Source: a virus. From it: DNA of 21,326 nucleotides. This document shows, one piece after another, positions 1-21,326 of the stretch. The notes under the pieces are model-generated. The model had not been told where the DNA came from. It did not search any database and saw only the letters and a list, made by a program, of their open reading frames with translations. The stretch covers positions 1 through 21,326 of IMG/VR virus record IMGVR_UViG_3300042539_002203, one strand, 5' to 3'. The position numbers and the translations under genes are program-made. How positions within the stretch are numbered: the first letter of the stretch is position 1; each line of letters begins with the position of its first letter.

Positions 1-879
1 AGCGAGGTATTTGGTGTACTGTTCGGTACTGTATTCGGTAATACCTAAAATGTCGTTGCCAACAATGTGATTTGTCCAGCGACATTCGTGTTTAACGGCA
101 GTATCGAACATCTCATAAATCTGTTCAACGGAATAGGAGAAAGTGTCCATAGCTTCCGGAATAAGTTTCTGATACAAACGGACGTGACTTAATTCGTCCC
201 GGTTGATCATTTTGAAAACGTCAGCACTACCCGACATTAGCTGTCGAGAAGCGAGATTATAGAAAAAGATAAAGCCGTTGTAAAAGTACAAACTCTCCAG
301 CAAATAATCGGCGACAAGGGCGATAAAATAGCTTTCAGTAGTTTGTTTGTCGATATATTGCTGGTAGAGACTAGCAATAAATTCACAGCGATCCCTGAGA
401 ACTTTATCAGTGCGCCAAAAGTCATAAACTTCGCCTCTGCGAGCGGAGGGAATAATCGTTTCAATTAAGTATTGATAACTTTGATTGTGCATGGCCTCTT
501 GAGAAATTTGTTCCGCCATACAAAGACTAATTTCTGGGGCAGTGACGCTACCTTTTAGGTGGGGAATATTACAGGTTTGTACGGAATCAAGAAAAGTTAG
601 ATAGGACAAAATACCATCATAAGCAGATCTTTCTTCGTCGGCAAGATGCCCGTATTCAGTCACGTCTTGAGTGATATCTAATCGTTGCGGAATCCAGAAA
701 TTTTCACGCATTTGTTGATATAAACCCACCGCCCAAGTGTAGCGGACATCGTTTAATTGCATCAGGTTGGTGGTGTTACCAAACCAGATCGAACGGTTTT
801 CGATCGCATCATCTCCCGCCGGATTGAATATCGGGGAAATGGGCATTGAATGGGGAGAATTAACTAAATGTAAGGACAT
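1..879 (-). CDS. nrdB: Ribonucleoside-diphosphate reductase, beta (radical) subunit, partial
   Basis: This gene encodes the small subunit of class I ribonucleotide reductase, which holds the di-iron/tyrosyl radical cofactor used with NrdA to make deoxyribonucleotides in the cytoplasm. The first 293 residues are visible; the 3' end lies outside the window. Reading down from the ATG at 879, residues matching the family's metal ligands are D98 (LDSVQ), E128 and H131 (QEAMHNQSY), E195 (LLESLYFYNGF), and E229 and H232 (NRDELSH). Y135 sits where the radical tyrosine is expected. The frame is open over the whole 879 bases and the N-terminus is a normal cyanobacterial NrdB start. The call as NrdB is firm; that it is a host gene and not a phage copy is inference from its neighbours, since the prophage-type genes begin only after the 1 kb gap to its right. 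Confidence 0.95.
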   Translation of the reverse strand, partial: MSLHLVNSPHSMPISPIFNPAGDDAIENRSIWFGNTTNLMQLNDVRYTWAVGLYQQMRENFWIPQRLDITQDVTEYGHLADEERSAYDGILSYLTFLDSVQTCNIPHLKGSVTAPEISLCMAEQISQEAMHNQSYQYLIETIIPSARRGEVYDFWRTDKVLRDRCEFIASLYQQYIDKQTTESYFIALVADYLLESLYFYNGFIFFYNLASRQLMSGSADVFKMINRDELSHVRLYQKLIPEAMDTFSYSVEQIYEMFDTAVKHECRWTNHIVGNDILGITEYSTEQYTKYLA

Positions 880-5930: not shown

Positions 5931-6533
5931 ATGCCAGATAAGTTAGCGATCGAATATTGCCGCCTCTCCGATCTTGTTCCGCTAAAAAGCAATTCCAAAA
6001 AGCACGCAACCGAAAACACGATCGCTCTGATTCTTGAATTTGGATTTAAAGACCCGATAGGCATAGACCCGTCTCTTAACAAGGGGAAAGGAGGGATTAC
6101 AGAGGGTCATGATCGCCGTGCGGCTTTACTAGAAATCAAAAAACGGAATATTAAGCCGCCGCGGGGAATTTTGACCGATAAAGACGGAGAATGGTTAGTG
6201 CCTGTTTTGATAGGAGTAGAGGCGGAAAGTGAGGGAAAAGCTGTAAAATACTCCATTTTACACAACCATTCTACGATTCACGGGGCAGGACTCGATCCTA
6301 TCGATGAGCTAAAATTATTCGATCACGATCTGCTACTCGAACAAGCAGAATATCTCGATAGCGAGGGGGAAAATTTAGGAGCGATCGGGGATTTAAATTC
6401 AATTCTTGCCACCTTGAATGTAGGAGACAGCGACGATAGTGGCGATGAAATTCCCGACGATAATCAAGATATAGATGAAGAAAGCTTAGGAGAAACCAAA
6501 CACGAATGCCCAAACTGTGGCTTTAAATGGTGA
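5931..6533 (+). CDS. ParB/Srx-fold domain protein with C-terminal Cys pair
   Basis: This 200-residue protein has a ParB-like domain at about residues 6-118: the YCRLSDLVPLKSN start, the helix around ENTIALILEFGFKDPI, and the ITEGHDRRAALLEIKKR box at 56-72 that matches the ParB GxxR (CTP-binding) motif. It ends in HECPNCGFKW, a single CxxC that could be half of a zinc-binding site shared in a dimer. Phage ParB-like proteins of this kind are usually next to DNA methyltransferases, as here: the next gene overlaps or abuts this stop. They are not necessarily partition proteins; some have nuclease or DNA-modification roles. Residues 145-190 are a long acidic linker. Domain call firm, role uncertain. 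Confidence 0.85.
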   Translation: MPDKLAIEYCRLSDLVPLKSNSKKHATENTIALILEFGFKDPIGIDPSLNKGKGGITEGHDRRAALLEIKKRNIKPPRGILTDKDGEWLVPVLIGVEAESEGKAVKYSILHNHSTIHGAGLDPIDELKLFDHDLLLEQAEYLDSEGENLGAIGDLNSILATLNVGDSDDSGDEIPDDNQDIDEESLGETKHECPNCGFKW

Positions 6534-6538
6534 TAGTT

Positions 6539-7555
6539 ATGACGTGGAATTTTCACCCAAAACCACAAACAAAACCGATTACAATACGAGAGGCTTTTAG
6601 GGGATTAAACGAGAGCGAACCTTGTCCGATTGTTATGCCCGAATATATCCGAAAAGTCGCTAGGGAGATAACACCGGGGGATTTTAATAGCGACAAGGTA
6701 AAGCCGATACTTGCCAAGCATAATAATGGGAAAACGGGCGGTTTTATGAGTTTAAAGCGACTATCATGGCACAAAGAATCATGCACTCTTATTAAATCTT
6801 CCCACTGGGGAAACATCGGCATAATTCACCCCAATGGTGAGCGGTTTATCAATGAAGCGGAATTAAAGCGGGTTGGGAGTTTTCCCGACGATTTTATATT
6901 CCCTGATTCCCTCGGATTTAAAAATGTGATCGAGCGGATCGGGAATTCAGTCCCCCCCAATCTAATGCGGGCGATCGCTGAGAATATCAAAAATTCACCA
7001 TTTCTTCGAGATACCGATCGCCTGACCGCGATCGATACTTTTTCAGGATGTGGAGGATCGTCGCTCGGATTAAAGCTCGCTGGCTACGATGAACGCTTGG
7101 CCGTGGAGTGGGATGATAATGCGTCCGCTACCTACCGAGTCAATTTCCCCGACACTCCCCTGTATCATGGCGATATAGCAAAACTTTCCCTAGAAAAAGC
7201 GATCGAACTATCGGGATTGAGACTTGGAGAACTCGATTTACTCACTGGCTCACCGCCCTGCCAAGGATTCAGCGTGGCAGGGAAACGAAACCTGTATGAT
7301 GATCGCAATCAGCTATTTAAAGAGTATTGTCGGTTTTTGCAGGGTTTCAAGCCAAAAGCGTTCGTGATGGAAAATGTGCCCGGTATGATTTGTGGCCACA
7401 TGAAACAGGTCGCTCTCAATATATATAAAGAGTTGCGATCCTGTGGGTACGAGGTCAGGGGGCAAGTCCTCAACGCTAAATACTATGGGGTTCCGCAATC
7501 TAGGGAGCGGGTGATCCTAGTCGGTGTACGCTCGGATTTAGTACAGAGGCATTAG
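6539..7555 (+). CDS. DNA (cytosine-5)-methyltransferase with circularly permuted motif order
   Basis: This enzyme transfers a methyl group from S-adenosylmethionine to C5 of cytosine. All key motifs are present but in rotated order. Numbering from the ATG at 6527: a recognition-domain-like part comes first (about 17-110), then FPDDF (119-123), motif X IGNSVPP (138-144), motif I AIDTFSGCGGSSLGL (168-182), motif IV GSPPCQGFS with catalytic C245, motif VI ENVPG (282-286) and motif VIII QSRERV (324-329). The protein stops just after VIII. Usual enzymes begin with motif I and end with the target domain, IX and X. The ATG at 6539 is preferred because GGTGA lies 5 bases upstream; the ATG at 6527 overlaps the ParB-like stop and lacks one. 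The gene is followed by a terminator. No restriction endonuclease is visible nearby, so it may be an orphan phage methyltransferase. Confidence 0.92.
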   Translation: MTWNFHPKPQTKPITIREAFRGLNESEPCPIVMPEYIRKVAREITPGDFNSDKVKPILAKHNNGKTGGFMSLKRLSWHKESCTLIKSSHWGNIGIIHPNGERFINEAELKRVGSFPDDFIFPDSLGFKNVIERIGNSVPPNLMRAIAENIKNSPFLRDTDRLTAIDTFSGCGGSSLGLKLAGYDERLAVEWDDNASATYRVNFPDTPLYHGDIAKLSLEKAIELSGLRLGELDLLTGSPPCQGFSVAGKRNLYDDRNQLFKEYCRFLQGFKPKAFVMENVPGMICGHMKQVALNIYKELRSCGYEVRGQVLNAKYYGVPQSRERVILVGVRSDLVQRH

Positions 7556-7594
7556 CTATAGATGTGCATCGATAGTTATCTATGATGGGCATTG

Positions 7595-7640
7595 AAAAAA
7601 CTCTCGAAAAAAAGTTTCAAGATTTTCTGAGAGTTTTTTT
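7595..7640 (+). terminator. Rho-independent terminator after the methyltransferase
   Basis: AAAAAACTCTC (7595-7605) pairs with GAGAGTTTTTT (7629-7639) and the stem ends in a run of seven T. It lies 40 bases after the methyltransferase stop. Confidence 0.75.
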
Positions 7641-7704
7641 GTGAGAATCAGCAGACTCCTTGCGGGGCAAGTGTTTTAGGAGTTAGGCAGTGCTTCTGTC
7701 CTTT

Positions 7705-7803: not shown

Positions 7804-9102
7804 ATGTTTTTGTCTATCGAACAAATCAAAACCTGCGAAGTTTACTCCGAATTACAAGCTATCGGCAAGGAACTGAATATCGCTTACGAAGCGGAATTAA
7901 GAATACTAAGAATTTCTAAGGACAAGTTGCGGGAATCGATTATTAATTGGATCGAGGAAAACTTAGCTGATTATTTCCCAGATTGGAAAATCGAGCCGAT
8001 TAGCATCGAGAATGTAGAAATCAAAGCGCAGGGAGTTAAATTCCCGAAAATCAACAAAAACGCAACAATAGAACAGTACCTAGAGCAAAGCGATTGTTAC
8101 GAGTTTGACGTGATTATAACCGAAAAAATCACCTTATCCGATAAGGATTTTATCGAGTTTAAGCAAAAGCTTTTGGCTGATTATGAATGGTTAGCTGGCA
8201 AAGGCGGGGAGCAGAACTGCTTACTCGTAACATCTCTAAACGGCGATCCACTCGTGGTCGATCCACAAGGTCATAACTATCCTCGCTATGTAGGATTCCT
8301 GACAGAAGAAACCACAAACGAAACCGAAATCGTGACCGCTATCGAGGAGATCGAAACTGAAACTATCGAAGAAACCGAGACTATCGATGAAACCGAGACT
8401 ATCGATGAAACCGAGTCAGAAACGACCCCTGACGAAACCGAGAAAGATATCCACATCAGCGTTACCCCTGATAAGAAATACTGGGTAACAAAAAACTACA
8501 CCGAAAACTGTATGCAATTAACAGATAGCACTTTTAAAGTGATTGCTTCTATCCCCATGGAAGTATGGGAATCGCTAAAAGTAAAAACTCATATCATGCT
8601 GTACAAAGAATGGCTGGAACTAAACACTCCTGTAAACATTCCCACGATCTCTGAATGGCTAGAGTCTAAAGGACTAAATGATCGCTGGGTTGATACAGGA
8701 TTAGTAAACATGGACTGCCGATTGTTCACTGACGGCACTAAATACTACGCCGTCAATAAAGATGGGGCTATCATGTCCACAATGGATAGCCAGTTCTTTA
8801 ACCCGAAGTGGTTTAAGTCTCAGTCGTGGGAAAGCTGGCTAGGTATCGAGAAAAAATCATCAAGCCGCAAGTCTGGCGCACCCGGCACACGCGCATCCAA
8901 TCCCAACGCTAAGACTCCCAAAGTACCGCAAAAACTGATCGACTTTATGCGAGAAAAACCCCGGACAGTACAAGAAATGATGGAACTGATGGGATGGAAT
9001 TACCACAACGCCCGCAATTACTTAAACTACATCAAGTGGAACGGGATGACTCTCGTTTCCGAGGGCAAAGGCGAAAGCCGTACTCATCAAATCATTGACT
9101 AA
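7804..9102 (+). CDS. Large accessory protein with acidic repeat linker and C-terminal winged-helix-like region
   Basis: I do not recognise this 432-residue protein. Residues 1-165 form a mixed domain. Residues 167-214 are a low-complexity Glu/Thr linker built on ETIDET units; its DNA has three tandem 18-bp units at 8362-8415. Residues 220-355 form a Trp-rich domain with short DGTKYYAVNKDG-like strands. The last 60 residues (VPQKLIDFMREKPRTVQEM onward) look like a winged helix for DNA binding. AAGGA lies 9 bases upstream of the ATG. The 18-bp promoter element at 7705 is upstream. It is probably a DNA-associated accessory phage protein; no enzymatic motif is visible. Confidence 0.8.
   Translation: MFLSIEQIKTCEVYSELQAIGKELNIAYEAELRILRISKDKLRESIINWIEENLADYFPDWKIEPISIENVEIKAQGVKFPKINKNATIEQYLEQSDCYEFDVIITEKITLSDKDFIEFKQKLLADYEWLAGKGGEQNCLLVTSLNGDPLVVDPQGHNYPRYVGFLTEETTNETEIVTAIEEIETETIEETETIDETETIDETESETTPDETEKDIHISVTPDKKYWVTKNYTENCMQLTDSTFKVIASIPMEVWESLKVKTHIMLYKEWLELNTPVNIPTISEWLESKGLNDRWVDTGLVNMDCRLFTDGTKYYAVNKDGAIMSTMDSQFFNPKWFKSQSWESWLGIEKKSSSRKSGAPGTRASNPNAKTPKVPQKLIDFMREKPRTVQEMMELMGWNYHNARNYLNYIKWNGMTLVSEGKGESRTHQIID
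8362..8415 (+). repeat. Three tandem 18-bp units inside the accessory gene
   Basis: Units start at 8362, 8380 and 8398. Units two and three are identical and the first differs by one base. They encode TIEETE, TIDETE, TIDETE in the acidic linker. Such repeats change copy number easily, so linker length may vary between strains. Confidence 0.85.
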
Positions 9103-10199: not shown

Positions 10200-10376
10200 A
10201 TGCTTAACAGAGAAAAACGTACAATAGAAATACAAATTGAATACAAAAAACAAAGACTTTCTGTAGTTGAATTACAAATTAGAAAACACCGAAATCCTGG
10301 TAAATACAAAAAAGAAAGAGACTTGATTTTGTCTGAAATTGAAAAAATGGAAGCCTTAATTAATGCAATGTCCTAA
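10200..10376 (+). CDS. Small coiled-coil protein (58 residues)
   Basis: This 58-residue protein is almost all charged helix (for example REKRTIEIQIEYKKQRLSVV), with leucine/isoleucine spacing fitting a coiled coil. AAAGGAG lies 7 bases before the ATG and a consensus promoter lies about 35 bases upstream, so this is strongly supported as the first gene of an operon. Its stop region overlaps the next start by 14 bases. It resembles in character the small protein at 11072. The function is unknown; a small partner or regulator protein is plausible. Confidence 0.7.
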   Translation: MLNREKRTIEIQIEYKKQRLSVVELQIRKHRNPGKYKKERDLILSEIEKMEALINAMS

Positions 10377-10560
10377 ATGCCAATCACAGAGAATCTCTAA
10401 AAAGGGATTCTCTGTGTCGGGAAAACAAAGATACCGATGTAAAGATTGCCAGTATTATTTCACTGGTAATCCCGTCGGTAGACCGCCAGAAAATGAAACC
10501 AGCAACAACGCCGAAAGATGCCGGCGTTATCGATTAAAGAAAAAGAAATCAAGTTCTTAA
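10363..10560 (+). CDS. Zinc-ribbon protein similar to IS1 InsA N-terminus, with AT-hook-like tail
   Basis: This 65-residue protein begins MQCPKCQSQRISKKGFSVSG and goes on to KQRYRCKDCQYYF. The two CxxC pairs at C3/C6 and C26/C29 form a zinc ribbon like that at the N-terminus of IS1-type InsA proteins. It is followed by NPVGRPPENE, whose GRP core looks like an AT-hook, and a Lys-rich tail. It therefore probably binds DNA. No transposase catalytic domain follows, so it is either a domesticated fragment or a small phage regulator. It overlaps the upstream gene by 14 bases and is followed 9 bases later by the next gene, all in one operon. Confidence 0.75.
   Translation: MQCPKCQSQRISKKGFSVSGKQRYRCKDCQYYFTGNPVGRPPENETSNNAERCRRYRLKKKKSSS
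10386..10415 (+). repeat. Perfect 10-bp hairpin inside the zinc-ribbon gene
   Basis: ACAGAGAATC (10386-10395) and GATTCTCTGT (10406-10415) are exact reverse complements with a 10-base loop. The hairpin lies just after the start of the zinc-ribbon gene, where it could slow translation or be an autoregulatory site. It has no T-run, so it is not a terminator. Confidence 0.6.
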
Positions 10561-15823: not shown

Positions 15824-16247
15824 AGAAGCGATAAACAACCCGATTGATTGGGAGAAAATCTATTTTCAGTGGTTCGCTTGGGGATTGCCGGCCGAAGAGT
15901 GGCACGAATGGCCAGACTGGATGATTCTCAAAAAATGGTCGGGAGTGCAGCGAATCAAGGCAGAAGAAATAAACTCGCTATCGGGAACCGTGAGCCAGAT
16001 TGCCGCAATGGTTCATTCCTACATGAAAGCCCAAGCCAAGGATAGCGGAAAAATAAGCGACCTCACCCCAGGGGATTTTCTCCCATACCGACTGGAAAAA
16101 GAGAAAGAAACTTTCTTCGATCCCGAAACCGCCGAGATATTGGTAGAGGCATTAAAAGCCGGGGAAGTCCCCGTTTATGCCCTACAAATAATCGTGGATT
16201 GTGGACTATACGACGAACTCATACAGCTAGGAGACAAGGAAAAATGA
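15795..16247 (+). CDS. Tail assembly chaperone, -1 frame extension (gpGT-like)
   Basis: This frame has no ATG near its start and is read as a fusion after slippage: join of 15043-15795 and 15795-16247, about 401 residues in all. The extension begins RIDEAINARLEAINNPIDWE and contains a Trp-rich block (FQWFAWGLPAEEWHEWPDWM) like that seen in the T part of many G/GT chaperone pairs, then two helical parts. A TTG at 15885 could act as an independent start, but the open frame upstream and the slippery site make fusion far more likely. Its stop overlaps the tape measure ATG by 4 bases. The T part normally binds the tail tube subunit, while the G part coats the tape measure. Confidence 0.8.
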   Translation, partial: RIDEAINARLEAINNPIDWEKIYFQWFAWGLPAEEWHEWPDWMILKKWSGVQRIKAEEINSLSGTVSQIAAMVHSYMKAQAKDSGKISDLTPGDFLPYRLEKEKETFFDPETAEILVEALKAGEVPVYALQIIVDCGLYDELIQLGDKEK

Positions 16248-19200
16248 CCGTTTCACTAGGTACGCTAGAAATCGGACTAGGTTTAATTACTACTCAGTAC
16301 GATACTGGTATCGCACGGGCAAAAGGTCAACTTGTCTCCCTACAGCGTATGGCCGCCCGCTCTGGGGTGACGGTGAAAATCGGGGTAAAAGTAGATGATC
16401 GCCCGTTGTACCAACTAAACGATCACCTTAAGTTAAAACGGGATGACCTCGATAAAACCAGCGATCACTATCGGCGCAACCCTATTCGGGTATTTGTCGA
16501 GGATCGGCAACTTGTTAGTCTTAATCAGCAGTTGCGAGAGTTAAAGCGTGTCAGCGTTGATATAAAAGTTCCGTCCCGACTTGTGGTCGAGCATCGGTTT
16601 TCGGGGTATCAGGACAAAGTAGAAAAAGAGATCGAGCGATCAACATCTCGCCTTGCCTCAGAAATCCGAAAATCCTATAGCCGCGGAGGGATTGTTGGGG
16701 CGGCTAGTCGCTTAGTAACAGGCGTCATTGCTTTACCTTTTAAAGCTACTGCGACGGTTTTAAGAGACGTTGTTAGAGGCTATTTTGAAAGAATCGGACA
16801 AGAATTTTCTAACACTTGGGCAGTAGAACCATCACGCAATGCTGCAAGAAAAATAACTATTGCTATCAAAAAAATAGACAGATATTTATTAGGACAAAAT
16901 CAAGTTCTTGAAACTTACTTGTCAGAATTGACTCGCTCTGGAAGCACAGAAAAAGCATTTAACGCCGCTTTTAAAAGAACTAATGTAAATCAGGTAATAG
17001 AAAGGTTTAAAACTCTACAAGAAATAGCTACGGTTCCTGCAAGTAAAACAAAGGAAAGATTAAGGTTAATTCAAAAAGACCCTGAACTATCGAAAATACT
17101 CAAACAATCAACAGAGGAAATACAAAAACAATATGCAGGACAGGGGTTGTCCAAAGCTGAAATAGCAAATTTATCAATGCAACGATTTTTAGAAAATGCA
17201 CAACCTCAGACAAAAGTAGTTAATATACTTAATTCTTTTTTAAAAGAAATTAGCCCCTTTTTACGCTTCGTACAGGGAATGAAAGACTACAGAACTTCCC
17301 TAGAAGCCCAAAAGATTTACAGTGAAAGAAAGGCGGGTTTCCCAAAATTAAAAGAAGGGGAAGACGTTGTTAGCGTCATTGGAGGCGCACAATTTAGAGG
17401 GGGGCAAGGCGGGCGTAAAGCAGCTATGTCTTTAGAGCCGTTAGCTCCCCAAAAAAGATTTATTCCTGTAGAAAATCCTGAAACCGATACCGATTTAGAA
17501 AATGAAAGGCCAGCAGAAAAACAGTTTAAGGCTTTTATTTCTCGGAATTTAACCTTTTTAGAAGGGGAAGAAGCTCTAAACACCTTAATAAACGCTTTTA
17601 GGCAAATATCGTCTAGCTTGGACGCTTTTACTCCGTCAACTGCTGCGGCTCAAGCATTAGCCAACACAATGCTTGCTCAAGAGCAAGGACGTAAAGGAAA
17701 TGTTGTTTCATATTCTTTGGGTGGTGTGGATAATATTCAATATGCCAGAACCGCTCAATTTATGGGAGTAAAAGATACTCAAGCGTTAGCAATGGCTTAC
17801 CCTTTTGTTGACATAACCCAAAGCACACCCAAAAACTTCACGGCTTCGATGCTAACGTCCGATCCCCTCGGCTTTGTCAAGCTTCTAGGGATCGGGAATA
17901 AAACAAATCAATTTATGGGGATAGAAAGCACAAACCCCTATGGAAGTGCAAATCACCATCAGAAACATCTTTTTAAAAACATAGAATTTATAAATAAGTT
18001 TTTTGCAACAATTAACGCCAATATTCCAGATTTATCTCCTGGCAAAATATCAGCAATTGTAGAAGCAGGAGATAAGCTTTATGAGTTAATCGGTTCGATG
18101 AATCAAATAGAATCGGTGTTGAGTACAGGAGAATTTAATACCGATCTGCCTTTCCACAGATTTTTGCAAGGATACGATGGGCAAACCACCAAGTCTAATG
18201 TCTTAGACTTGGTGTTAGAAATGATGCAAGATAACTTCGCAATTGAAGCATTTAAAGATGTGGAAGGAGCAGAAGAATTTTATGCAAAGTTAAGAAATCA
18301 ATTTGACAAAATTGCATCACAATTTAAAGAAAAATTTCAAGCGTCAGGCGTTAATTTACCAGAAAACCTTGCTAGAGATTTTGCTGGTTTTCTGAAATAT
18401 CAGGAAGTGGCAGAAGGATACAATAAGTCCATGACGGAATTCCAGACCGGAAAAGTCTCTGAAAAACCGTCATGGTGGGCTGGCAATCTCGATCCCAATA
18501 CCGTAAAACAGCGCACTGGGAAGCTACAGACAGAAACTATTCCATGGTTTAGAAAAGAAGGCTCTAAATTTGGCTCCTATCAAGACGCTTTAATAGAAAT
18601 GTTTACCTTGATTGACAAGGTAACAAAAGAATATGTTAGTCGAGGCGGGAATTTATCGGACGAAACCAGACAAAATCTTAAGTTTTTCCCAACTGAAACA
18701 ATCCCAAGCGAAATAAACGCTTTTTTGGGAAAATCATTTCCTACCAAAAATTTACCCAAAGAAGAAATTGTTAGAGACTTAAATCTGCAATTCCCTGAAT
18801 ATACTGCTTCAACATCTAATTTAACTGCTTTACAAAAAATTGATTATGAAGCTGAAAAACAAAGAGTAACTAAGTTATTTAGAAATAGGCAAGCGGCTAT
18901 TCTTGCGTACAATAAATTAATCACGGAACTAACCGCTGAAATTGTCCCTAGTATAGACAAAATAAAAGCGATCGGTACGGGTTTTCCTGAACTAGGAATG
19001 CACGGCTCCTTTGCCTTTTTAACTGATGAATTTGTTTATAAAACCGATATTGACCCAGAAGGTGTTAATAAAAAGATAGCAACTCCTAATGAACTAGAAA
19101 CATATAAACAATTACAGGGGAGACTATCGCCGCTTCTTTATAAAGCGGTTCCCGATAAAGCTATCGTCACCGAAAGAATACAAGGAAAAACGCTAAAAGA

Positions 19201-21326
19201 AATTTTAACTAGAATAGCGCAACCGTTCAAGAAAGTTCAGAAACAATTGGCGGATGCTACCCTTGCGCTAGATAAAGTCACAAAAGAAGGCAATGAAGCT
19301 GAAATAGAAAGATTAAACAAAGAAATAACAAGTTTAGAAAAAACAGCACAAAAAGAAAAAACTCGCTTCAATAAAGCGGCAACCATTCTTTATAAACAGG
19401 TTGGACAATTAAACTCGGCATTACAAAAAATGGGTGTTGTCCATAATGATTTGGCCGAAACTAACGTATTTTTCTCGCCTCAAGGAATTCGGGCTATAGA
19501 CTTCGGTGGATCACAGGTTAATCCTACAGCCGCTCAAAAAATTGAAGACAAGAAAACCGTCATAGATAGAATGATGGGGAATAATCAGTATAAAGGTTTG
19601 ATGGACAAAACGGCCGTGGCTGGGGCTATTTTGTCTGGTTTTCAATCCCCTTTGCCAATACCTGAAAAACGAACCGTTGATCCAGAAAAGTTAAAACAAA
19701 CCACGCCAGGACAATTAATAGAACTAGGATCAACTAATCCCACGCTCTTGCAGCAATACGGTGAGAAAATAACCTACCCTAAAACAAAACCATTTTCTAT
19801 ACCTCCAAAGCAAGAAAAAGTTACTACGCCAAAAACTGAGAAGCTTAATCCTACTGTATTTCTAGAACAATCCTTAACCAGAAATACAGACAGAGCTATA
19901 ACAGCGTTAAATTCTATAGAACAAGCTTTAAATGAAATAAAAAAAGGTATTCTGGCTAAATATGCTAGTCCTTTAATCGATCCGTGGCAAAATAGCACGC
20001 CTGACCCGTGGGCTAAATCTAACGCCGAATTAATGCGGGCTTTTGTAGATGCAATTAACAAGGTATCCTCACAAAAGCTTTTGCCGCCCGCTCCTGACGA
20101 TTTTGGCAGTAGTGAAACAGATAGAGGAAACAGCCCACTAGAAAAAATCTTAGAAGATATATCTATTAAAGCCCAAGCGGGTTTAAAAAGTGCTTTAACT
20201 ACTAGATTATCAACTCCCGATAGTAGTGGTGAAATACAGCTTTTAACAGGGCAAGAAAACATTTCAGAACTGTTAAATCAGGTATTAATTAGAGAGGTAA
20301 AAGAAGCGGGCAGAATACTTGGAAACGCTCTCAAGGATGCCTCTCTAGATGTCGTCAAGTTCGGTCAAATTGTTTTCACCGTTCTAAAAGCGATCGAACG
20401 TCCCGTTATGGCTATTCCCGGTGTGGGACTGGGGAAAAAAGCACTACAGGTAGGGGGAACCGCCGCAATAGGAGCGGCCGCTCTCCACGCACTCCCGATG
20501 GGGTTAGATGCCACAATCGTTAACGAGATGCGAAGCATTCTAGCGGGGGCAATGAGTGCAGGCGGTCGGGAAATGATCCAAGCCGTAGCCACACAAATGA
20601 CTCAAGCTTTTAGCGGCTTGCCGTTTGGAGTGGGACAACAGTTAACGGAAGCGGTAATGAACCTTGTTACCGAACTAACCAACGGCACTATCAGCGTCTT
20701 AGCGCAAGGGGGGGCGGTCGCTGGATCGGCGTTAATGGCGGGGGAAGGGGTTAAGAAGCTTTTAGGGGCGGCTACCAGTAGCGTCCCTAAATTAATTGAC
20801 AAAGAAGAACAGCAAAAAATTGAAGGTAAAACCCAGAAACTTTTAAAAGCCGCAAAAGATAAAGCCGGTTCTTTAATTACTACTGAAATAACCCCATATT
20901 TTGACGAAAAAGCTTTCCCGGTAAGTAGTCCTATTCCAGCTAACATCAAGGCAATTAACCCAAAATATTACACGGTAAAACAATTACGAGGATTAGCTAG
21001 AGATCAGGGAATTGATGTACCAGCATCGGGAGCAGGAGCCAGAAAAGAGGAAATATGGAAATCATTAACTGAAAAATTTAACCCTGACCAACTAACTCGA
21101 CTTTTACTAACAACAAAAGCAAGTGATAGAACAAAATTAGGGAAAAAAGAACTTAGTGGATTCCAAGTTGAAACTACAGAAATTCCTGCTGATTTTACCA
21201 AGAGAATTGGCATTGGCATAAAAAACATTGGTCAAGAAATTAATACTACTAAAGATATCCAATCTTTAGAACGTCTTTATTTTCAATTAGAAAAAGTTAA
21301 AAAGGGAATTACAGCGTTAAGAGCTA
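16244..21326 (+). CDS. Phage tail tape measure protein with embedded kinase-like and hydrolase-like domains, partial at 3' end
   Basis: Tape measure proteins set tail length and pass into the host membrane or cytoplasm at infection. This frame is open for about 1694 residues to the window edge. Residues 1-170 are strand/coil and end in a hydrophobic patch near 160. Residues about 485-580 contain VVSYSLGG (S491), SDPLG (D540) and NPYGSANHHQKH (H571/H572/H575), like an alpha/beta-hydrolase triad. Residues about 905-1110 look like a kinase: Gly-rich GMHGSFAF, VYKTD (K933), ELETY (E952), a VTERIQGKTL hinge, then VVHNDLAETNVFF (D1069, N1074) and AIDFGG (D1086). A coiled coil (about 997-1050) is inserted in it. 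Residues 1393-1490 are Ala/Gly-rich hydrophobic, typical of tape measures, and 1575-1608 resemble SAP/Rho-N. Position after the chaperone and length support the tape measure call. Confidence 0.85.
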   Translation, partial: MTVSLGTLEIGLGLITTQYDTGIARAKGQLVSLQRMAARSGVTVKIGVKVDDRPLYQLNDHLKLKRDDLDKTSDHYRRNPIRVFVEDRQLVSLNQQLRELKRVSVDIKVPSRLVVEHRFSGYQDKVEKEIERSTSRLASEIRKSYSRGGIVGAASRLVTGVIALPFKATATVLRDVVRGYFERIGQEFSNTWAVEPSRNAARKITIAIKKIDRYLLGQNQVLETYLSELTRSGSTEKAFNAAFKRTNVNQVIERFKTLQEIATVPASKTKERLRLIQKDPELSKILKQSTEEIQKQYAGQGLSKAEIANLSMQRFLENAQPQTKVVNILNSFLKEISPFLRFVQGMKDYRTSLEAQKIYSERKAGFPKLKEGEDVVSVIGGAQFRGGQGGRKAAMSLEPLAPQKRFIPVENPETDTDLENERPAEKQFKAFISRNLTFLEGEEALNTLINAFRQISSSLDAFTPSTAAAQALANTMLAQEQGRKGNVVSYSLGGVDNIQYARTAQFMGVKDTQALAMAYPFVDITQSTPKNFTASMLTSDPLGFVKLLGIGNKTNQFMGIESTNPYGSANHHQKHLFKNIEFINKFFATINANIPDLSPGKISAIVEAGDKLYELIGSMNQIESVLSTGEFNTDLPFHRFLQGYDGQTTKSNVLDLVLEMMQDNFAIEAFKDVEGAEEFYAKLRNQFDKIASQFKEKFQASGVNLPENLARDFAGFLKYQEVAEGYNKSMTEFQTGKVSEKPSWWAGNLDPNTVKQRTGKLQTETIPWFRKEGSKFGSYQDALIEMFTLIDKVTKEYVSRGGNLSDETRQNLKFFPTETIPSEINAFLGKSFPTKNLPKEEIVRDLNLQFPEYTASTSNLTALQKIDYEAEKQRVTKLFRNRQAAILAYNKLITELTAEIVPSIDKIKAIGTGFPELGMHGSFAFLTDEFVYKTDIDPEGVNKKIATPNELETYKQLQGRLSPLLYKAVPDKAIVTERIQGKTLKEILTRIAQPFKKVQKQLADATLALDKVTKEGNEAEIERLNKEITSLEKTAQKEKTRFNKAATILYKQVGQLNSALQKMGVVHNDLAETNVFFSPQGIRAIDFGGSQVNPTAAQKIEDKKTVIDRMMGNNQYKGLMDKTAVAGAILSGFQSPLPIPEKRTVDPEKLKQTTPGQLIELGSTNPTLLQQYGEKITYPKTKPFSIPPKQEKVTTPKTEKLNPTVFLEQSLTRNTDRAITALNSIEQALNEIKKGILAKYASPLIDPWQNSTPDPWAKSNAELMRAFVDAINKVSSQKLLPPAPDDFGSSETDRGNSPLEKILEDISIKAQAGLKSALTTRLSTPDSSGEIQLLTGQENISELLNQVLIREVKEAGRILGNALKDASLDVVKFGQIVFTVLKAIERPVMAIPGVGLGKKALQVGGTAAIGAAALHALPMGLDATIVNEMRSILAGAMSAGGREMIQAVATQMTQAFSGLPFGVGQQLTEAVMNLVTELTNGTISVLAQGGAVAGSALMAGEGVKKLLGAATSSVPKLIDKEEQQKIEGKTQKLLKAAKDKAGSLITTEITPYFDEKAFPVSSPIPANIKAINPKYYTVKQLRGLARDQGIDVPASGAGARKEEIWKSLTEKFNPDQLTRLLLTTKASDRTKLGKKELSGFQVETTEIPADFTKRIGIGIKNIGQEINTTKDIQSLERLYFQLEKVKKGITALRA

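What the first reader, a model, noticed from the sequence alone, without database searches (positions are those of the whole stretch)
6539..7555. Circularly permuted cytosine-C5 methyltransferase in a prophage
Seen: FPDDF and IGNSVPP (IX/X) come before the SAM-binding motif I, the PPCQGFS catalytic loop, ENVPG and QSRERV, after which the protein ends. Known: most m5C enzymes run I to X; a few permuted ones, such as M.BssHII, start with IX-X. The break falls exactly where motif VIII would normally run into the target recognition domain, as expected from a tandem duplication that later lost its ends.
Basis: partly seen in the sequence, partly recalled or inferred. Interest (0 to 1): 0.75.

Follow-up and report, generated by a model that had tools for sequence, protein, structure and literature searches.

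The report
Phage cytosine methyltransferase with swapped halves
A virus, probably of cyanobacteria, carries a DNA-methylating enzyme whose two halves are in reversed order; about 27 such enzymes were already listed, but relatives in other viruses carry the DNA-recognition half on both sides at once, the half-way stage predicted for how such rearranged proteins evolve.

Summary
ORF 6527/6539-7555 (+) is a cytosine-C5 methyltransferase in the order TRD-IX-X-I...VIII. It is not an assembly artefact: two other assemblies read through the junction at 99.3-100% identity, a homologue (arm 70%, core 81-82% identical) has the same order, and dN/dS against it is about 0.1 in both halves. The topology is known ("Type H", as in M.BssHII; 27 REBASE cases). 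AlphaFold2 gives a confident single unit (pLDDT 88, pTM 0.89). The residue aligned to Arg350 of the carboxymethyltransferase CmoX is Asn136, so plain 5-methylcytosine is the expected product. What is new lies in the relatives. At least 13 homologues are single ~420-540-aa frames with a TRD-IX-X arm on both sides of one core; two more have the C-terminal arm broken; one locus has an upstream arm as its own ORF. N-terminal arms are scattered among C-terminal ones (one clade rejected, p-AU 3e-20). Together these form a natural series canonical -> two-armed -> permuted, as the duplication-and-loss model predicts. The nearest canonical relative is the enzyme of Aphanizomenon phage CL131. "Prophage" is not shown: the window is a 21-kb virus fragment. 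No held paper found describes two-armed enzymes; coverage is partial.

The parts
6527..7555 (+). Circularly permuted cytosine-C5 DNA methyltransferase, arm (TRD-IX-X) followed by core (I-VIII); start at 6527 or 6539
   Evidence: AlphaFold2 pLDDT 88.2, pTM 0.89; dN/dS about 0.1 against L009 in both halves, dS near saturation
6539..6991 (+). N-terminal arm, residues 1-151: linker after VIII, target recognition region, motif IX (FPDDF 6881-6895), motif X (IGNSVPP 6938-6958)
   Evidence: Arm HMM E about 1e-46; member of an arm family whose other members are mostly C-terminal (15 rows, 99*; 7 rows, 99/98*)
6992..7024 (+). Short linker joining the motif X helix to motif I (SPFLRDTDRLT), close to that of two-armed L011 and permuted L009, L075
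   Evidence: read through identically in L008 and L010
7025..7552 (+). Catalytic core, residues 163-338: motif I 7040-7069, motif IV SPPCQGFS 7250-7273 (Cys241), motif VI ENV 7370-7378, motif VIII QSRERV 7496-7513
   Evidence: Pfam PF00145 positions 2-165; VIA-align Z 18.0 to M.HaeIII 1dct, rmsd 2.0 over 168 residues
5931..6533 (+). ParB-like protein ending in a CPNCGFKW zinc-ribbon-like tail; its 3' end overlaps the first possible start of the methyltransferase
   Evidence: phrog_620 E 3.5e-14, phrog_498 E 1e-9; present upstream of all 12 two-armed loci with enough upstream sequence and of the close permuted ones
7594..7641 (+). Candidate intrinsic terminator hairpin right after the gene; no trace of a second arm was found downstream
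   Evidence: Fold -27.7 kcal/mol, z -2.67; arm HMM finds nothing downstream within the 1.5 kb held in L007

Best explanation
An active, orphan, phage-encoded DNA cytosine-C5 methyltransferase that folds like canonical ones but is read in circularly permuted order. The N-terminal arm (target recognition region plus motifs IX and X) packs on the I-VIII core, which binds SAM; the flipped cytosine is attacked by Cys241 and methylated at C5. The ParB-like gene upstream is probably translated together with it. The likely role is to mark phage DNA against host restriction. The permuted order most likely arose by gaining a second arm in front of a canonical gene (or a partial tandem duplication) and then losing the original C-terminal arm. 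Shown: the order, conserved motifs, purifying selection, a confident predicted fold, the two-armed and arm-broken relatives, and repeated change of arm position. Inferred: activity, 5mC as product, target site unknown, protective role, and the exact order of events in this lineage.
For: Motif order and family matches. Junction confirmed in independent assemblies. dN/dS 0.11 arm, 0.09 core. AlphaFold2 pLDDT 88, pTM 0.89. Core matches M.HaeIII and M.HhaI. Arg350 of CmoX (8yf3) aligns with Asn136 of the window (alignment; R350 named in PMC12783734); only L002, L003 and L005 of the sample have Arg there. Two-armed relatives: 13 intact, 2 with broken C arm. Four two-armed genes (L012, L013, L016, L184) keep an internal in-frame ATG with a Shine-Dalgarno-like stretch near where canonical relatives start. 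N arms as one clade rejected, p-AU 3.4e-20. Re-ordered arm+core tree: window, L009 and L075 one clade 97/90*, nearest canonical L001 of Aphanizomenon phage CL131 97/95*.
Against: No biochemistry; target and host restriction enzyme unknown. The arm-only tree puts L075's arm with a canonical one (98/86*), so there were either two permutations or arm exchange after one. No two-armed protein is the closest relative of the window, so its own intermediate is not seen. The natural start (6527 or 6539) is not settled.
Confidence: 0.83

Rival explanations
1. The permuted gene arose by reversed fusion of a split enzyme (arm subunit gene placed before core subunit gene, M.AquI-like) and not by duplication and loss.
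For: One locus, L066, has an arm in its own ORF just upstream of a canonical enzyme; a Prochloraceae genome has a core-only and an arm-only frame about 1.9 kb apart; PHROGs has short arm-only families (phrog_23910, phrog_13621).
Against: No locus in the sample has arm ORF plus core-only ORF in reversed order, whereas 13 have two arms fused to one core.
Confidence: 0.15
2. A carboxymethyltransferase (CmoX-type) that uses carboxy-SAM for base hypermodification.
For: The best solved relative by sequence is 8yf3, a DNA cytosine C5-carboxymethyltransferase; a ParBc-domain gene also accompanies many CmoX enzymes (PMC12783734).
Against: The carboxylate-binding Arg350 is Asn136 in the window and Asn in nearly all relatives where the motif was scored; no CmoA- or ligase-like gene was recognised in the window.
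Confidence: 0.04
3. Assembly error or decayed pseudogene.
For: None found.
Against: Same order in L008, L010, L009 and L075; dN/dS about 0.1; all catalytic residues conserved.
Confidence: 0.01
4. Two separate permutations, one in the window/L009 lineage and one in L075.
For: Arm-only tree separates L075's arm from the window's (98/86* and 99/93*).
Against: Concatenated tree joins them (97/90*), and the arm-to-core linkers are alike; exchange of arms after one permutation would give the same picture.
Confidence: 0.3

Closest known systems
M.BssHII, M.Alw26I, M.Esp3I, M2.BsaI and other natural Type H permuted C5 methyltransferases (27 in REBASE, PMC5944983)
   Same: Motif X before motif I; new N-terminus between motif VIII and the target recognition domain; single chain
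   Different: Those named belong to restriction-modification systems; this one is an orphan in a virus next to a ParB-like gene. Sequence kinship not tested
C-5 methyltransferase gp003 of Aphanizomenon phage vB_AphaS-CL131 (L001)
   Same: Nearest canonical relative: core 60-63%, arm about 45% identical; also a phage gene whose start overlaps the end of the gene before it
   Different: Canonical order core then arm
SpCmoX, DNA cytosine C5-carboxymethyltransferase of Synechococcus phage S-B43 (8yf3; PMC12783734)
   Same: Best match among solved structures; related arm and core; ParB-like neighbours common
   Different: Canonical order; Arg350 in motif X replaced by Asn136 here, so carboxy-SAM use is not expected
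Laboratory duplication/truncation intermediates of M.HaeIII and permuted M.MpeI/M.SssI (cited and described in PMC5944983)
   Same: Same arrangement logic: a fused duplicate truncated at its ends leads to a permuted active enzyme
   Different: Made in the laboratory; the two-armed proteins here are natural and their two arms differ in sequence

Membership tests
DNA cytosine-C5 methyltransferase (PF00145) | Motifs I, IV (PC), VI (ENV), VIII (QxRxR), IX and X present | tested here: met
   PF00145 E 1.9e-65; all key residues conserved in the alignment
DNA cytosine-C5 methyltransferase (PF00145) | Produces 5-methylcytosine | not testable with these tools
   Needs enzyme or methylome data
Circularly permuted C5 methyltransferase, Type H | Motif X precedes motif I in one chain | tested here: met
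Circularly permuted C5 methyltransferase, Type H | New N-terminus between motif VIII and the target recognition domain | tested here: met
   N-terminus aligns with the segment just after motif VIII; C-terminus 13 residues after QSRERV
CmoX DNA cytosine carboxymethyltransferase | Arg at the position of SpCmoX R350 | tested here: not met
   Asn136 (alignment)
CmoX DNA cytosine carboxymethyltransferase | cmoA (carboxy-SAM synthase) nearby | tested here: inconclusive
   None recognised among window proteins scanned, but the window is a fragment
Two-armed C5 methyltransferase (L012-L018 and others) | Second TRD-IX-X arm after the core | tested here: not met
   Stop 13 residues after motif VIII; no arm match downstream in the 1.5 kb held
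Split C5 methyltransferase (M.AquI type) | Core and arm in separate ORFs | tested here: not met
   One ORF
Type II restriction-modification system | Cognate endonuclease gene next to the methyltransferase | tested here: inconclusive
   Neighbours are a ParB-like gene and an ORF of unknown family; no nuclease recognised, but many ORFs have no family
Prophage | Host flank or integration site | tested here: inconclusive
   Linear virus record of 21,326 bp; no flank in the window

The most novel reading that the evidence does not exclude
In this phage family the arm that reads DNA is a mobile module that can sit on either side of one catalytic core. Two-armed proteins are working enzymes with two target specificities (and possibly two products from an internal start), and circular permutation, as in the window, is the by-product of arm gain and loss under pressure from host restriction.
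Probability: 0.4. Interest if true: 0.75.

Novelty: new member of a known kind. Interest (0 to 1): 0.52.

Why it matters
Circular permutation of methyltransferases was explained by duplication followed by loss of ends, and the intermediates were built in the laboratory. Here the predicted natural stages are found side by side in one virus family: canonical enzymes, enzymes with an arm on each side, two with the second arm broken, and the permuted enzyme of the window. That makes an evolutionary model directly testable with natural proteins, and suggests a family of possibly two-specificity cytosine methyltransferases.

Tried and rejected
Assembly swap: rejected. Carboxymethyltransferase: rejected on the R350 position. 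Remnant of a second arm downstream of the window gene: none found, and a terminator-like hairpin follows. N-terminal arms as one ancestral clade: rejected (p-AU 3.4e-20). Two-armed enzymes in isolate phages: L017 as query gave no record covering 80%; plasmid hits over 80% are spans of canonical size, 0.9-1.0 kb, where pieces of both arms of the query fall on one arm. Relatives among 386 cyanobacterial genomes: only the Prochloraceae MAG carries a close one. Sequential structure aligners show only the core of the permuted model, as expected. Literature searches for natural two-armed intermediates found none in the held library; PMC102321 is not held. Counts come from pattern-based scans seeded with this family, so they are not frequencies in nature.

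Full report
What is there. The ORF at 6527/6539-7555 (+) encodes a cytosine-C5 DNA methyltransferase in permuted order: a target recognition region, motif IX and motif X come first, then motifs I to VIII, and the chain ends 13 residues after QSRERV. Pfam, NCBIfam and PHROGs agree on the family. The junction is real: contig L008 from another metagenome matches 8246 bp of the window with one mismatch, L010 from a third matches 4619 bp at 99.3%, and the more distant L009 and L075 have the same order. Between the window and L009, dN/dS is about 0.11 for the arm and 0.09 for the core; dS is near saturation, so this shows strong constraint but not an exact value.

Fold. AlphaFold2 on 16 related sequences gives mean pLDDT 88.2 and pTM 0.89 for the whole 338-residue chain. 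The core matches M.HaeIII and M.HhaI. The high pTM argues that the N-terminal arm has a defined place on the core; I could not inspect the coordinates, so that the arm sits as in canonical enzymes is an inference.

Product. The closest solved relative by sequence is 8yf3, the carboxymethyltransferase SpCmoX of a Synechococcus phage (PMC12783734). Its Arg350, which holds the carboxyl group, aligns with Asn136 of the window, in IGNSVPP. Counting the printed alignment back from residue 365 puts the Arg of VGRMVPP at 350. In the sample only L002, L003 and L005 have Arg there. Plain methylation is therefore expected. In the core tree those three form a starred sister group to the window's family.

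Known topology. Natural permuted C5 methyltransferases are known: a REBASE search listed 27, all cut in the variable region, mostly Type H, with the new N-terminus between VIII and the target recognition domain (PMC5944983). The window enzyme fits Type H. Two more permuted enzymes seen here, in Thermus phage phiLo (L004) and in a cyanobacterial genome (L275), have distant cores, so permutation probably arose more than once.

The family holds the intermediates. I built profiles for core and arm and read the architecture of every fetched locus. Most are canonical. Thirteen distinct proteins are single open frames with an arm before and an arm after one core: L011, L012, L013, L015, L016, L017, L018, L076, L111, L117, L184, L205, L218. 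In a few of these one arm is matched only in its motif IX-X part. L018 recurs identically as L025 from another sample. L014 and L030 have the N-arm and core in one frame while the C-arm is interrupted; single metagenome contigs cannot exclude sequencing errors there. L066 has an upstream arm in its own ORF. Motif IX and X residues are conserved in the N-arms. AlphaFold2 of the two-armed L017 gives pLDDT 89.9 and pTM 0.75; its core plus C-arm aligns to 8yf3 over 316 residues with Z 38.1, leaving the N-arm as an extra domain.

Arms change sides. The best match of an N-arm is often a C-arm elsewhere: L014 N-arm is 70% identical to the L062 C-arm, the L017 N-arm about 60% to C-arms of L044 and L028, the L117 N-arm 64% to the L116 C-arm. 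Trees force at least six changes of position on well-supported branches, and a single clade of N-arms is rejected with p-AU 3.4e-20. In the core tree two-armed proteins are scattered among canonical ones. In L012, L013, L016 and L184 an in-frame ATG with a Shine-Dalgarno-like stretch lies between N-arm and core; in L013, L016 and L184 it falls where canonical relatives start (MLDFIDKPINP..). So an arm seems to have been set in front of a complete gene, and such genes might also make a canonical product.

The window lineage. With arm and core put in one order, window, L009 and L075 form one clade (97/90*), and the canonical enzyme of Aphanizomenon phage CL131 is the nearest canonical relative (97/95*). 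By arm alone L075 separates from the window, so one permutation with later arm exchange and two permutations both remain open. The short linker between motif X and motif I resembles that of two-armed L011.

Setting. A ParB-like gene overlaps the first possible start of the window gene and is found upstream of all 12 two-armed loci with enough upstream sequence, of the close permuted ones, and of 62 of 104 canonical ones of the close group. A ParBc-domain gene also accompanies many CmoX genes, function unknown (PMC12783734). The window carries a terminase large subunit, an anti-repressor-like protein, a neck/tail-completion-like protein and a long tape-measure-like ORF. GCGATCGC occurs four times against 0.27 expected; that this octamer is typical of cyanobacterial genomes is general knowledge. 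With the cyanobacterial relatives it suggests a cyanobacterial host. Integration is not shown.

Verdict. The window enzyme is a new member of a known kind. The natural two-armed enzymes and arm exchange around it are the more novel part; they lie outside the window and their function is untested.

Noticed in passing
window 16199-21325: Tape-measure-like ORF of 1709 aa (open at the window end) with an embedded kinase-like stretch (HNDLAETNVFF...IDFGGS); RIO1 matches below its cut-off, E 5e-4.
   Followed up: partly
window 1-879: Ribonucleotide reductase small subunit on the minus strand, cut by the window edge (PF00268 E 2e-58).
   Followed up: no
window 10363-10560: Short ORF with an InsA-like zinc-finger start only (phrog_1191 transposase E 7e-7).
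   Followed up: no
window 7804-9102: 432-aa ORF of unknown function after the methyltransferase with an acidic Glu/Thr repeat tract; phrog_21303 E 1e-8.
   Followed up: no
L012, L013, L016, L184, between N-arm and core: Internal in-frame ATG with a Shine-Dalgarno-like stretch, so a two-armed gene could also yield a canonical enzyme.
   Followed up: partly
L066 4794-5258: An arm in its own ORF between a ParB-like gene and a complete canonical methyltransferase: a possible stand-alone specificity subunit, or a frameshifted two-armed gene.
   Followed up: partly
L002, L003, L005: Moraxella phage Mcat8, Synechococcus phage S-B05 and Streptomyces phage TurkishDelight enzymes carry the CmoX-type Arg in motif X; TurkishDelight has ParB-like and glutamine amidotransferase neighbours, S-B05 an asparagine synthase.
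   Followed up: partly
L004 3824-5053; L275: Permuted C5 methyltransferases with distant cores in Thermus phage phiLo and a cyanobacterial genome, probably separate permutations.
   Followed up: partly
G010:C47:19068-21894: Prochloraceae genome with a core-only frame and an arm-only frame about 1.9 kb apart: split or interrupted methyltransferase.
   Followed up: no
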